Of a stretch of DNA of 64,000 nt, positions 21,838 through 26,782 are shown piece after piece. Made by a program: the position numbers and the translations under genes. The first letter of the stretch is position 1; each line of letters opens with the position of its first letter. The notes beneath the pieces are model-generated. The model saw nothing but the letters and a program-made list of their open reading frames with translations, did not search any database and had not been told where the DNA came from. Origin of the DNA: Leptodactylus fallax (lineage: Eukaryota > Chordata > Amphibia > Anura > Leptodactylidae); NCBI GenBank assembly GCA_947044405.1, contig CAMRHE010000012.1:8614001-8678000 (forward strand), given 5' to 3'.

Positions 21838-22320
21838 TGTAAGTATGTGAGCCAGAGGACGCTGTTGAGCGACCCAGGCCAGGCCAGAAAAGGCTCTCAG
21901 CCACGCCTTTGGGGGTGGCACGTAACTCCAGGAGGGCTGGAGTGTCCTGCAGGAAGCAGGAAGTGGTGGACCAGCTAGGACAGAGAGAGAGGCTCTGTCC
22001 CAAAAGGGCTGGCGTCCACAGGGGTGGACCAGCTAGGACAGAGAGATAGGCTCTGTCCCAGAAGGGCTGGCATCCACAGAGGACTGTTGCTGGAGCTGAG
22101 CAACAGTCAGGACAGTTAGGGGCTCAAGGAGTGAGTTAGGCCCTAACTGTGGCATAGGTTTTTTGTTGTTTTGTTATGTTGCAGTTAAGCTGAATAAAGG
22201 CACTTTTATTTTACACTTGGACCGTCTGAAAGCTATCTTTCCGGCGCCCAGTACCATGAACCACCGCTGTCCGGACCAGGAAAAGCCGCCATTTTGAGTT
22301 TAATTCCCCAAATTATCACA
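21838..22320 (+). repeat. 5' LTR of the chimeric element
   Basis: It starts TGTAAG at 21838. The part shared with the 3' copy ends at 22256. I extend it to 22320 (AATTATCACA) because the following TATGGTGGAGAAC has the same two-base spacer and TGGTGGAG core as the Gmr1 primer site. The alternative end is at 22256 (AGTACCA). A polyadenylation signal AATAAA lies at 22193-22198. A 58-bp unit is tandemly duplicated at 21966-22081. Confidence 0.8.
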
Positions 22321-22322
22321 TA

Positions 22323-22340
22323 TGGTGGAGAACGCGCGCA
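22323..22340 (+). promoter_or_regulatory. Putative primer-binding site
   Basis: TGGTGGAGAACGCGCGCA follows the presumed LTR end by two bases. It shares TGGTGGAG with the Gmr1 element's site (30870 downward on the minus strand), suggesting a gypsy-type parent. The priming tRNA is not assigned. Confidence 0.6.
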
Positions 22341-22813
22341 TAAAGAGATCCACGCCAAGTCCTGGAAGACAAGTGATTGGTGACTGCAGTACTGCTAAGT
22401 GTGAATTGTGGCCTATAGCTGGAAGAAATCTGTGATTTCCACTGAGAAGCCCAGGAAGGGGTGAGTGAATTGCAACATAGCAAAGTGTGTGCAAAAACTG
22501 GTGAAAGTAAAACTCTGGATGAGGAATCCAGGGAATGGACTTTGTGTATACTGTGGCACAGAAGTCTGTGAAATGTTTGCTGATGGCAAGAAAGTAAGCA
22601 ATGTTTATAGAAGCTGGATATTGCAAACAAGTGTATGCAAAAGGCTATGGTGCCATGTTGGTGTTTTCTGTGGAAGACAGAAGAAAATGCTGGTTGTTGT
22701 AGTGCCACATAAGTTAACTGTGTGAATACAGGTGACTGCAGAAAATAGCAAAAAGTTGCTGCCGGTTGAACCCAAAGTTGCTGTGGAATATTGTGTAATT
22801 TTGTTAGTAAACC

Positions 22814-25800
22814 ATGGGCAAGAAAAAGAGAATTTCAGCTTGTAAAAAAGCAGAGAAGTTATGCTCAGGTTTATTAATGCAGCAGTCTGAATGCAGAGAG
22901 ACACAAAACCCGGAACAGATCATGTGGAATGCAAGTAAAGATAAAGGGTTGCATGATGGTGACTCAATTTTTCTAAAGCACCTCTGTTCTATGATGGAAT
23001 ATGTCCCTGCTGAGTGTGTGTCTCATAATGGAGTGCATGAACGCGCCAAAGATGAAAATGTTAGGGTGCAGCAGCTTCAAGATGAGAATAAAACCATCAG
23101 GTTCATGTATGAGAATGAAATATCTGATTGGAAATGGCAACTTTTGGTATCAGAAAGAGAGAACCTTAAGTTGAAGGCAGAGCTTGACTCTATGAAGAGG
23201 TTATATCCTAGTCATTGTGAAAATGTGGTACTGGGTTTGCCTGGAATGGACTGTGTCACTAAGAAGGAGTTTGCAAAAATGAAATGTGCTCTAACTAATG
23301 AAGTTATACAGACTGTAGAGCATAAGCAAGTGCTTGAGAAGCAATTGCAGGATTTAAAGGAGCAGCATGTTCAAGACTCCACTGCCAAAGAGAGTGTCAT
23401 TGAAAAAATAAGAGATGACCTTGAAACTGCTAAACATGAGAGAAGTGAATTTTTGCAGAGTCAATCAGAATGTCTGGATGACAAAGTTAAGATGTGTGAA
23501 AAACTTTCGGTTGCATTGACTGACAAAGAAAATGAAATTGCCGAGCTGAGGAAGCATGTGTCTGACCGAGAGAGTGATTTAGAATCTGTGGTGCAGACAT
23601 TGCAGTCAGAGCAAAACTTGCATCAGGTTCGCCTAAATGGTGAAATCCACGAATGGCGAAGTAAAGCTGGAGTTCTGGAACAAAGAGAAAGTGAACTCAA
23701 AGCTAGAATATGTAGCCTGGAGAGGGCGCTGTCAGGATCTTGTGAAGATAAAGAGAAATTGTCTGTTTTGGTGCAAAATAAAGACAAAGATTTGATGGAA
23801 ATGTCGTCTGTCCATGCTCAGAAAGTGCAAGCCTTACAGGAGAGTCATAAAAAAGTAGAGACTCAACTTCAAGTGATGCAACTAAAAGTCACAGAAGGGG
23901 ACAGATTTCAAGCAGAACTGCTAGACAAGGCAAATAGACTACAGGTGGAATTGGATAATGTCACAGGGCTTCTTTCTCAAGCAGACAGCAAGTTTATTAA
24001 ACTTTCCAAAGATTTTTCTACACTAGAATCTCAGCTTCAGGACACTCAGGAACTTTTGCAAGAAGAAACTTGTCAGAAGCTTGACCTTAGTACAAAACTA
24101 AAACAAATGGAAGATGAGAAAAATGATTTCCTTGAGCAACTAGAGGAAGAGGAGATAGCAAAAAGAGATTTGACAAAGCAGATTTCAACACTACAGGCTC
24201 AGGCGACTGATATGAAGAAAAAAATGGAAGATAGTATTGGGTCCTTGGACTCTGTTGAAGAACTAAAGGAAAGGTTGCAAAAGGAGCTAGAAGCTACAAA
24301 TCAACGGTTTGAGGAGAAGGTTGCTGCTTATGACAAACTTGAGAAGACAAAAATTAGACTGCAGCAGGAACTAGAAGATGTAGGTGTAGACCTTGATCAT
24401 CAACGTCGGATGGTGTCAAATTTGGAAAGGAAGCAGAAAAAGTTTGATCAGCTGCTTGGTGAAGAGAAGACTCTTTCTGCTAGATATGCAGAAGAATGTG
24501 ACCGTGCTGAAGCAGAGGCCCTTGAATTGAAGGCCAAGTTAGAGAGGCTCAACAAGCAACTGTGCACTGAAATGGAGAATTTGGTTAGCTCCAAGGATGA
24601 AGTTGAGAAAAACTTGGAATCTGTGCAGATATTGTATGAGAACAAAGCTAATGCTTATGACAAGCTGGAAAAGGCCAAGAGAGAATTGGACCTCCAGATA
24701 GAAGACATGAAGATTCAGTTTGAGGGAAACCTGTCTAATTTGTCTACTGAGATTGTAGATCTAAAAATTCTTGTTGCTAAACTAAAGGTGCAAGTGAACC
24801 AGCAGGAGGAAATTGCACGCATCAAGAAACAGCTGGAGTTTCAGATGGATCACGTGAAGCGCGAGTCAGAAATAAAGTTGGAAGAGCGCACTGTTCAGAT
24901 TGAACAGTTAAAAACCGAAGTGGAATCTAAAAGAGAAGAATTGGATCGATTGCAGCAGTCTCTATCCATTACTGAACAGTCGGCATCTGCCCTATCTTGA
25001 AAGCTGTCAGCACTAGAAGCTGAGAAGGATTCGCTGCAGAACCTGTTAACCTCTAAAGAATCAGAGCTGCAAGGTGCACTAGTAAAGACTGAGATGGAAG
25101 CGGCACAGAAAAATGTCGCAGTGAAGAAAGTTCTGGAGCTGGAATCAGAGATTTGTGCGCTACAGAAGGCGTTAGAATTGGAAAAAGCTGCCAGTATAGA
25201 GGCAGAGAAAGGAGAATCATTAAGTCAGAAAGACATGAGTGACCTGTCCACTGATGTTGATACCAATGATCAGATTATGATGAAACCACGTGACTCGGTA
25301 AAACGTCAAGTAGAGGGTATAGTACCCCAGGAAGATGCTGCTAAAGGTGGACTTCCTGCAAAATGTGAGGAGGCCAAAGAAGGTCCAACAGAAGAAGAAA
25401 CTGTGATTGGTCACACACTGCCTGTGACAGAGTGGGTCCAGCCTCAAACCAATGAGGTCCAAAGCCTAGAGGGCTGTGAGATGGTAAATAAGGTGAAGGG
25501 TCATCAAAAGTGTGGAACAAGAGTCCGTAAGAAGACTGACCACGCATATGTTGTCCCAACAGCTAAAGTGTCTGAAGTCATTGTGGATAAAGGTGTTGCT
25601 GTGCCTGCCTCTAGCCAAATGTCTGGTGGACAAACGGTGAATAATGACTCCATGTTGTCTGTGAAGGGGGAGTCAGGAAGTAAGAGATGGTTACATGTCA
25701 CCAATGATGTGACAGTTGTTAAAGACATGCCAGAAAATGTAGTTCAGTGTGATCTATTATGTGAGGGTGTACGGTATGGCCCTCGTGCAGAAGGAGAAGA

Positions 25801-26503
25801 TATTGCAGTACAGAGATTGTGTATCTCCAGCAAAGAGGAGAGCAAGCAGCCTATGTCTCCTAAACTTCTAAGCCTTGATGGTGATGGCAAAGTTTGCTTT
25901 GAGATGAAGGTTACGGAAAAAGTTCCCGTGATACAGTTATACTCTAAAGACATTGATGTGCATGAAGTACGTGTTAGTTGGTCTCTGAGCTCCTGTGAAT
26001 TCATGATAGGTGAAGATGAAGATTTTTACAGCTATTCACTAAAGGGATCAAAGTCATGCAATGGGATGGCTGAAGACTATCGTGAAAAATGTGATGAAAA
26101 TGATGTGATCCCCTGTGTGGTGAATTGTGAAGGTGATGGAGTAAAACTTGCCTTTGCACAGAATGGCCAGGATCTTGGCGTAGCATTGAAAGTGATGAGA
26201 AGACGGAAAACTCGATGGAGCGGAATTTGGAAGAAAAGACTGCCAGATTGTGACTACTGGATAGACACTGGACAGGCATACATGGTTGAAGAGGGACTTC
26301 ATCATAGGATGTCTCGTCCCATTGTAGCTCACTCCATGGGTAGTGAGCTGAGGGGGAGGGTATGTAAGTATGTGAGCCAGAGGACGCTGTTGAGCGACCC
26401 AGGCCAGGCCAGAAAAGGCTCTCAGCCACGCCTTTGGGGGTGGCACGTAACTCCAGGAGGGCTGGAGTGTCCTGCAAGAAGCAGGAAGTGGTGGACCAGC
26501 TAG
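22814..26503 (+). CDS. Chimeric coiled-coil protein with MYH9-like myosin tail
   Basis: ATG 22814 sits in a strong initiation context (ACCATGG). The frame runs 1,230 codons to 26503, with one TGA at 24998-25000 splitting it into 728 residues and a same-frame downstream part. Residues about 60-800 are heptad-rich coiled coil. From about 330 to 600 the order and wording follow the non-muscle myosin IIA rod: HAQ near 333, LQVELDNVTGLLSQAD, SQLQDTQELLQEE, EQLEEEE, DMKKKMEDS, EKVAAYDKLEKTK, KKFDQLLGEEKT, ERLNKQ and SSKDEVEKN, with a short internal deletion before ERLNKQ. The flanking coiled coils and the acidic C-terminal 400 residues are not recognised. The last 47 codons run into the 3' LTR. It has no introns, so it came from spliced RNA. 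It could act as a structural or myosin-interfering protein; that is speculation. Confidence 0.8.
24998..25000 (+). other. Single in-frame TGA in the chimeric ORF
   Basis: TCT TGA AAG interrupts an otherwise open frame, with coiled-coil sequence continuing without a shift on both sides. It may be a recent CGA-to-TGA type change or a readthrough stop. The base after the stop is A. Confidence 0.85.
26345..26362 (+). promoter_or_regulatory. Putative polypurine tract
   Basis: GAGCTGAGGGGGAGGGTA directly precedes the TG of the 3' LTR. Purine richness and position fit a plus-strand primer, although it lies inside the open frame. Confidence 0.7.
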
Positions 26504-26782
26504 GACAGAGAGAGAGGCTCTGTCCCAAAAGGGCTGGCGTCCACAGGGGTGGACCAGCTAGGACAGAGAGATAGGCTCTGTCCCAGAAGGGCTGGCGTCC
26601 ACAGAGGACTGTTGCTGGAGCTGAGCAACAGTCAGGACAGTTAGGGGCTCAAGGAGTGAGTTAGGCCCTAACTGTGGCATAGGTTTTTTTGTTGTTTTGT
26701 TATGTTGCAGTTAAGCTGAATAAAGGCACTTTTATTTTACACTTGGACCGTCTGAAAGCTATCTTTCCGGCGCCCAGTACCA
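26363..26782 (+). repeat. 3' LTR of the chimeric element, probably end-truncated
   Basis: A 420-bp match to 21838-22256 with three differences (CAGG/CAAG, GCATCC/GCGTCC, one T). If the 5' LTR truly ends at 22320, the last ~64 bases are missing here and the sequence passes straight into Gmr1 RNase H-side coding DNA at 26783. Confidence 0.9.

What the first reader, a model, noticed from the sequence alone, without database searches (positions are those of the whole stretch)
21838..26782. LTR element that captured a non-muscle myosin tail instead of carrying gag and pol
Seen: ~420-bp direct repeats with only three differences, a primer-like site and a purine tract flank a 3.7 kb frame whose middle follows the MYH9 coiled-coil rod block by block, without introns. 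No retroviral-type domain is present. Known: host gene capture by LTR elements is documented but rare, best known from oncogene-carrying retroviruses and a few plant elements. Inference: spliced host RNA was packaged and integrated, producing a mobile chimeric coiled-coil gene. The myosin part is far more diverged from vertebrate MYH9, which is normally very conserved, than the LTRs are from each other. The captured gene has probably been copied through many rounds while staying open.
Basis: partly seen in the sequence, partly recalled or inferred. Interest (0 to 1): 0.93.

Follow-up and report, generated by a model that had tools for sequence, protein, structure and literature searches.

The report
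Frog retrotransposon built from host genes
A frog jumping gene carries, in place of its usual enzymes, a patchwork protein copied from spliced messages of at least two of the frog's own genes, and it has spread to more than a thousand places in the genome while the coiled-coil part of that protein appears to have been kept readable by selection.

Summary
The finding is real and larger than reported. Window 21838-26783 is a non-autonomous LTR retrotransposon in a 2.5 Gb genome, by its HNRNPU a frog's. It has 483-bp TG...CA LTRs, a primer-like site and a purine tract; three relatives show 4-bp target duplications. No gag or pol was found. Its ~1,180-codon frame (one TGA here) is a mosaic: four MYH9 exons and four HNRNPU exons, joined with three GT-AG introns exactly absent in each (4.7% and 9.0% nt from the host genes), a HIP1-like coil, an older myosin-like piece and stretches of unknown donor. 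The element-MYH9 junction occurs at 1,340 places (reversed control 0). A related lineage (L056) lacks the MYH9 block and the HIP1-like piece and keeps far more HNRNPU, so captures look stepwise; both later inserts are lossless and in frame (747 and 252 bp). In 38 copies, single-copy changes look neutral (dN/dS ~1.1, 23 stops); changes in three or more copies look constrained (~0.57, no stops; p=0.0097). The C-terminal part shows no such signal. Closest precedent: maize Bs1. Enzyme supplier, HIP1 and N-terminal donors and protein function are unknown.

The parts
21838..22320 (+). 5' LTR, 483 bp, TG...CA, with an internal ~63-bp duplication
   Evidence: Repeats, internal repeat; true 3' end from solo LTRs and fuller copies
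22323..22339 (+). Primer-binding-like site TGGTGGAGAACGCGCGC just inside the LTR
   Evidence: The same or a near form follows ...TCACA in the other 5' LTRs whose 3' side was listed; resembles TGGTGGAGGATGC after the LTR of the gypsy element on the - strand
22340..22813 (+). Untranslated leader
   Evidence: Between primer site and the ATG; ACC ATG G in 37 of 38 loci incl. the window, ATG G in 38 of 38
22814..26353 (+). Captured composite reading frame (internal part; in open copies it runs on into the 3' LTR), split in this copy by TGA 24998-25000
   Evidence: 5 of 27 loci whose 3' LTR was reached are open from ATG to the LTR, the window not among them
22814..23848 (+). N-terminal part, coil-like in its second half, donor unknown
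   Evidence: No hit at E<=0.001 among 4,797 candidates, none convincing in PDB; heptad signal from about residue 150; aligned with L056 at 84.6% nt
23849..24598 (+). MYH9 rod block (human residues about 1244-1521, with a 17-residue internal gap); 747-bp insert relative to L056
   Evidence: 23849-24367 match four host MYH9 exons at 90-98% nt with three GT-AG introns absent; the rest lay beyond the host stretch fetched; absent from L056
24599..24811 (+). Coil shared with the L056 lineage (..AYDKLEKAKRELDLQ..)
   Evidence: 89.2% nt to L056
24812..25062 (+). HIP1-like coil (family of the HIP1 clathrin-binding coil), 252-bp in-frame insert relative to L056; contains the TGA
   Evidence: PF16515 56 bits, cutoff 28.8; absent from L056
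25063..25210 (+). Older myosin-rod-like piece (human MYH9 about 1093-1145), upstream of the other block in the host gene
   Evidence: best host exon in MYH9, 57% aa, 68.5% nt
25211..25882 (+). Stretch of mostly unknown origin (its first ~60 bp shared with L056), lost in part from whole subfamilies
   Evidence: No Pfam hit above cutoff; deletions; L056 match to 25272
25883..26194 (+). HNRNPU SPRY part, four exons joined
   Evidence: 82 of 104 aa to Leptodactylus HNRNPU; SPRY 34.2 bits, cutoff 26.3; exon joins
26195..26349 (+). Tail before the purine tract, also at the end of the related elements
   Evidence: 76.8% nt in L049 and 75.6% in L056
26350..26362 (+). Polypurine tract GAGGGGGAGGGTA
   Evidence: GGAGGGTA or a near form abuts the 3' LTR in the other copies listed except L035
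26363..26783 (+). 3' LTR, truncated (last 63 bp missing)

Best explanation
A family of non-autonomous LTR retrotransposons that has built its single gene by repeated capture of spliced host mRNAs. Shown: an LTR element with 4-bp target duplications; intron-free MYH9 and HNRNPU segments matching exons of the same genome's genes; the chimeric junction at 1,340 places; a sister lineage without two of the inserts; inserts lossless and in frame, the MYH9 one with short homology at its entry point; a sign of constraint on the coiled-coil part of the frame among copies. Inferred: LTR transcripts are packaged by the gag-pol of a Ty3/gypsy partner, host mRNAs are packaged with them, and reverse transcriptase switches templates twice at short homologies, inserting a piece. 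The coiled-coil product is kept because it helps its own RNA to be packaged or copied (possibly by self-assembly).
For: LTR ends, 4-bp duplications (CCTG, ATAC, CCAG; 3 of 3 places with both flanks in hand) and tract. HNRNPU: 310 nt over four exons, three GT-AG introns exactly absent, 28 differences. MYH9: four host exons at 90.4, 98.2, 94.3 and 94.7% nt, three GT-AG introns (1,118, 283, 1,322 bp) exactly absent; 24 of 512 nt differ. Junction 37-mer, up to 3 mismatches: 1,340 places, reversed control 0. L056 lacks the MYH9 block and the HIP1-like piece; inserts are 747 and 252 bp by diagonal shift; AAAGAAGTTGAGA in L056 against AAAAAAGTAGAGA in MYH9, 11 of 13 alike. Selection: 38 copies of 22814-25257, single-copy variants N:S 294:100 with 23 stops; variants in >=3 copies 49:33, no stops; Fisher p=0.0097, 0.0045 without CpG. 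Shared indels of 3 bp or more: 3 of 3 in frame.
Against: No constraint seen in the C-terminal part: SPRY N:S 48:15 single-copy, 22:9 shared, p=0.62; 37:11 and 24:9, p=0.79, without the badly aligned L031. Subfamilies lost 25257-25683 (11 of 29 copies) and 25302-25475 (5 of 29). Three of the six shared indels are 1 bp and break the frame, each in two copies. Single-copy indels >=3 bp are also mostly in frame (8 of 11), so the indel argument alone is weak. AAG/GAG-rich coil codons could give short homology by chance; no control was run. No partner with these LTRs was identified; LTR likeness to the gypsy element at 26784-31300 is slight (74 against a best of 64 in 300 shuffles; 34 against 30 with stricter scoring). 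HIP1 donor not found. The copies are the best matches to this window, not a random sample.
Confidence: 0.87

Rival explanations
1. Same anatomy and origin, but the protein does nothing: the frame is open in some copies only because the family is young, and the N:S difference reflects chance or sampling.
For: No constraint in the SPRY and tail part; whole blocks are dispensable; 31 of 38 loci carry at least one stop or frame break in the parts read (several were read only in part); no proof of translation.
Against: Variants shared by three or more copies show fewer replacements and no stops, while single-copy ones carry 23 stops. The two later inserts (747, 252 bp) and the shared deletions (246 and 189 bp; net 453 and 186 bp by internal length) are multiples of three. 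A neutral simulation at 10.5% change expects 15.4 stops in the frame, minimum 5 in 300 runs (the rate is the SPRY one and too high for the MYH9 block).
Confidence: 0.3
2. The chimera was first a host retrogene (or fused gene), kept by host selection, and an LTR element captured it once and spread it.
For: Would explain constraint and in-frame inserts; a host chimera elsewhere in 2.5 Gb was not excluded, since the scored lists are filled by element copies.
Against: The lineage without the two inserts (L056) is itself an LTR element with its own LTR pair, 97.2% alike, so the inserts most simply arose within the element lineage. Donor exons are in separate genes.
Confidence: 0.08
3. The direct repeats are unrelated duplications flanking a processed pseudogene, or the structure is an assembly error.
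For: The 3' LTR ends in an abrupt tail-to-tail join with another element at 26783/26784, which could be a local join error.
Against: Same LTR-ORF-LTR order and 4-bp duplications on other contigs; 1,340 junction copies.
Confidence: 0.01

Closest known systems
Bs1 of maize (passages of the review PMC13317346 read; primary papers not read)
   Same: LTR element whose frame joins segments of several host genes (three there: a proton ATPase, xylan endohydrolase, beta-1,3-glucanase), acquired by separate transductions
   Different: Plant; here an animal, two donors shown by exon joins, over a thousand junction copies, an intermediate lineage in the same genome, and a test for constraint among copies. 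Bs1 copy number was not looked up.
LTR-mediated retroposition in animals (Tan 2016, not held; seen through passages of PMC5408686, and PMC8277862)
   Same: Host mRNA copied into an LTR element by template switching at short homologies; one captured family (CG17604_r) noted as amplified by further transposition
   Different: Here a composite of several genes, built stepwise and spread widely; whether Tan 2016 holds such a case was not seen
Host-gene-carrying retroviruses such as E26 (myb and ets) or Gardner-Rasheed FeSV (actin and fgr) (recalled, not searched)
   Same: More than one host gene joined in one retroelement frame
   Different: Those are infectious viruses with gag fusions; here no gag or env was found
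Gmr1-like Ty3/gypsy elements (PMC4131045, and PMC4592553, passages read; integrase-before-RT order as their mark is recalled)
   Same: A neighbour at 26784-31300 has a SCAN-like domain and integrase before RT; similar primer-site letters
   Different: The chimera has no gag or pol; LTR likeness slight

Membership tests
LTR retrotransposon (structure) | Two near-identical LTRs with TG...CA ends | tested here: met
   2 substitutions and 1 indel over 420; TG...CA ends in fuller copies; 3' LTR here truncated
LTR retrotransposon (structure) | Short target-site duplication | tested here: met
   4 bp at 3 of 3 other places with both flanks in hand; not testable at this copy (3' end lost)
LTR retrotransposon (structure) | Primer site and polypurine tract inside the LTRs | tested here: met
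   by position; the primer itself was not identified
LTR retrotransposon (structure) | Dispersed copies | tested here: met
   1,340 places
Ty3/gypsy (Metaviridae) | gag, RT, RNase H and integrase | tested here: not met
   None found in the frame; not filed as a member
Gmr1-like non-autonomous derivative | LTRs shared with an autonomous Gmr1-like element | tested here: inconclusive
   Slight likeness, 74 against 64 for the best of 300 shuffles
LTR-mediated capture of host mRNA (Bs1 kind) | Host exons joined without introns inside LTRs | tested here: met
   HNRNPU; MYH9
LTR-mediated capture of host mRNA (Bs1 kind) | Short homology at the switch points | tested here: inconclusive
   MYH9 entry side 11 of 13 letters alike, no chance control; MYH9 exit side and HIP1-like insert not tested, their host RNA was not in hand
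LTR-mediated capture of host mRNA (Bs1 kind) | Segments from several host genes | tested here: met
   MYH9 on C226 and HNRNPU on C200; HIP1-like by Pfam only
Transforming retrovirus with captured gene | gag fusion or env | tested here: not met
   No such domain; no CCHC knuckle

The most novel reading that the evidence does not exclude
A retrotransposon lineage that has replaced its own genes with a protein assembled piece by piece from host mRNAs and now depends on that self-made, host-derived coiled-coil protein for its spread, for example as a stand-in scaffold that assembles with a partner's particle and favours its own RNA.
Probability: 0.25. Interest if true: 0.95.

Novelty: new variant of a known kind. 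Interest (0 to 1): 0.83.

Why it matters
Gene capture by LTR elements is mostly met as single events. Here the steps lie open in one genome: donors with their introns, a lineage without and a lineage with two of the captures, the junctions, over a thousand descendants and a sign of constraint on the product. That makes two open questions directly testable: how often and by what junctions reverse transcriptase joins host mRNAs, and whether a host-derived protein can become a mobile element's own working gene. It also means that more than a thousand MYH9-like stretches could be misread as host gene exons in such a genome.

Tried and rejected
Capture of MYH9 only: rejected by HNRNPU and the HIP1-like piece. 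HIP1 as mere coiled-coil noise: the myosin block and a MYH9-like protein give no HIP1 match and no non-myosin family above its cutoff, the N-terminal coil gives HIP1 only 8.2 bits, against 56. Remnants of gag or pol in the leader, the unknown stretch or the tail: nothing convincing against the two gypsy elements of the window (best protein match E 0.010 over 14 residues). N-terminal donor: none. Relatives in viral contigs: none. Relatives as annotated proteins: only a MYH9-like fragment and, for the second piece, 202 proteins of which 120 were listed, these at 23-24% coverage and, where named, mostly as HNRNPU. Host HIP1 by human letters: none. Tree of the HNRNPU piece: nearest Leptodactylus, support 96/75, on 104 columns, so only a hint that the donor was a hyloid frog. 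A structure prediction was not run. My first report draft gave the MYH9 insert as 738 bp; the diagonal shift gives 747.

Limits: only the 40 best matches were scored per genome DNA search (candidates 2,480, 2,070, 2,290). Rows dropped: in the 22814-25257 set, L001-L008 (not ORF-centred), L009 and L039 (the window itself, kept once as WIN) and L047 (same place as L011); L019 and L038, and L040-L048 were not used. L031 was kept there though it aligns badly; one search repeats the test without it. L019 ends in N and is not counted as open to the LTR. Sites with three or more alleles (90) were left out. The host MYH9 stretch ended before the last ~230 bp of the block.
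Full report
What is there. The direct repeats at 21838-22257 and 26363-26783 differ by two substitutions and one indel. Solo LTRs and fuller copies elsewhere in the same genome show that the LTR is longer, 483 bp, running to 22320 (TG...TCACA); a primer-like TGGTGGAGAACGC or a near form follows, and GGAGGGTA or a near form precedes the 3' LTR in the copies listed except one. 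Three of three other places with both flanks in hand carry a 4-bp target duplication (CCTG, ATAC, CCAG). This window's 3' LTR lost its last 63 bp where it meets, tail to tail, a gypsy element on the other strand.

The frame. From ATG 22814 the frame runs to and into the 3' LTR but is broken here by TGA at 24998-25000. No gag, protease, RT, RNase H, integrase or CCHC knuckle was found. The frame is a mosaic: an N-terminal part without a known donor; a myosin block (E 1.7e-82 over the first piece; 165 of 228 residues identical to human MYH9 from residue 1244); a HIP1-like coil (PF16515, 56 bits against a cutoff of 28.8); a second myosin-like piece that in the host gene lies upstream of the first; a stretch of mostly unknown origin; and an HNRNPU SPRY part (34.2 bits against 26.3; 82 of 104 aa to Leptodactylus fuscus HNRNPU).

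Donors. The host HNRNPU gene is on contig C200 and has introns. The element's 310 nt match four of its exons with all three introns, each GT...AG, exactly absent and 28 differences. The host MYH9 gene is on C226. Four of its exons match 23849-24367 of the element at 90.4, 98.2, 94.3 and 94.7% nt, with three GT...AG introns of 1,118, 283 and 1,322 bp exactly absent; 24 of 512 nt differ. The host stretch fetched ended there, so the last ~230 bp of the block were compared only with human MYH9. The older myosin-like piece is closest to an upstream MYH9 exon but only 57% in protein and 68.5% in DNA; three other myosin loci give 48-55%, so which myosin gave it is unsure. The HIP1 donor was not found: one search with human letters gave nothing and the family search did not complete.

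Copies. The genome has 2.50 Gb in 2,215 contigs. Searches with the LTR, the ORF middle and the N-terminal part each scored the 40 best of 2,480, 2,070 and 2,290 first-look candidates, and each listed 40 matches (LTR 96-100%, ORF middle 98-100%, N-terminal part 97-100%). A 37-base pattern across the element-MYH9 junction, with up to three mismatches, is at 1,340 places and its reversed control at none. Of 27 loci whose 3' LTR was reached, 5 are open from the ATG to the LTR, the window not among them. Over 22814-25257, 10 of 37 other copies have neither stop nor frame-breaking indel (one of the 10 is partly N). Subfamilies share deletions: 25257|25683 in 11 of 29 copies, 25302|25475 in 5 of 29, net 453 and 186 bp by internal length.

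Order of events. Locus L056 (C31) is a related LTR element, LTRs 97.2% alike over 494 bp, whose frame (now broken) lacks the MYH9 block and the HIP1-like piece but carries HNRNPU residues 178-628. L049 (C58) has the older myosin-like piece joined to HNRNPU residues 178-610. Relative to L056 the two inserts are lossless and 747 and 252 bp long, both multiples of three. At the MYH9 entry point the L056 letters AAAGAAGTTGAGA stand against AAAAAAGTAGAGA in the MYH9 exon, 11 of 13 alike. This is what two template switches at short homologies would leave (mechanism as in PMC5408686, passages), though coil codons are repetitive and no chance control was run. The reading that L056 shows the earlier state, not a loss, rests on the MYH9 insert matching a host gene exon by exon.

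Selection. In 38 copies of 22814-25257, single-copy variants have N:S 294:100 and 23 stops, near the neutral expectation (dN/dS about 1.14). Variants in three or more copies have 49:33 and no stops (about 0.57); those in two copies 43:18 with 2 stops (about 0.92). Fisher p, single-copy against three or more, is 0.0097 for N:S, 0.0045 without CpG sites, and 0.021 for stops (0.056 without CpG). Shared indels of 3 bp or more are in frame in 3 of 3 cases, but the three shared 1-bp indels are not, and single-copy indels of 3 bp or more are in frame in 8 of 11, so indels alone prove little. In the SPRY and tail part there is no contrast (87:26 single-copy, 35:14 shared, p=0.55; the same without the badly aligned L031). 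Against the host genes the window's dN/dS is 0.51 for SPRY (median 0.46 of 27 copies) and 0.42 for MYH9 (median 0.48 of 38); these include the host's own constrained branch and are weak evidence. A neutral simulation at 10.5% change expected 15.4 stops in the whole frame, minimum 5 in 300 runs; that rate is the SPRY one and too high for the MYH9 block. So constraint on the coiled-coil part is likely, on the HNRNPU part not shown.

Age. LTR pairs differ at 2 of 420 sites in the window copy, 13 of 468 in L047/L011 and 5 of 222 in L024. The tree of 38 copies has short inner and longer end branches (median 0.012), as after a burst. No calibrated rate was used.

How it probably works. Shown: LTR structure, spliced donors, spread, two lineages that differ by the inserts, a sign of constraint on the coil part. 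Inferred: transcription from the LTR, packaging and copying by an unidentified gypsy partner, template switching inside the particle, and use of the coiled-coil protein by the element. No partner with these LTRs was found; likeness to the Gmr1-like neighbour is slight.

What is known. Maize Bs1 is the nearest kind: one LTR element with segments of three host genes (PMC13317346, passages). LTR-mediated retrocopies in animals, and one captured family amplified by an LTR element, are described (PMC5408686 and PMC8277862, passages). Listings of the library searches with these donors and with related terms showed no title or abstract start on this frog family; no bioRxiv preprints and few subscription journals are held. 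Hence a new variant of a known kind.

Noticed in passing
window 8722-16112 (- strand): Near-intact gypsy element: LTRs 99.7% alike over 1,005 bp, gag with a PNMA domain, CCHC knuckle and a weak protease match, pol in RT-RNase H-integrase order.
   Followed up: partly
window 26784-31300 (- strand): Gypsy element with a SCAN domain match in its gag region and integrase ahead of RT (Gmr1-like order, recalled), cut off at 26783 by a tail-to-tail join with the 3' LTR of the myosin element.
   Followed up: partly
L049, L056 and HNRNPU-like matches on about 13 other contigs: Further HNRNPU-like copies, most with matches that skip query residues 139-180 (about residues 523-564 of the protein). The two that were read are intronless, related elements carrying much of HNRNPU, including its P-loop part; the rest were not read.
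   Followed up: partly
window 19069-20701 / 61352-62980 and 42287-43926 / 52786-54436: Tc1/mariner-type pairs 95.5% and 96.4% alike. The 5' LTR of the myosin element abuts a repeat (21634-21846, 88.8% to 18827-19048) whose end looks like a Tc1 end (recalled).
   Followed up: no
window 16488-16946, 32447-33122 and 57431-58431: Tandem repeat arrays, two of which give long frames without likely meaning.
   Followed up: no
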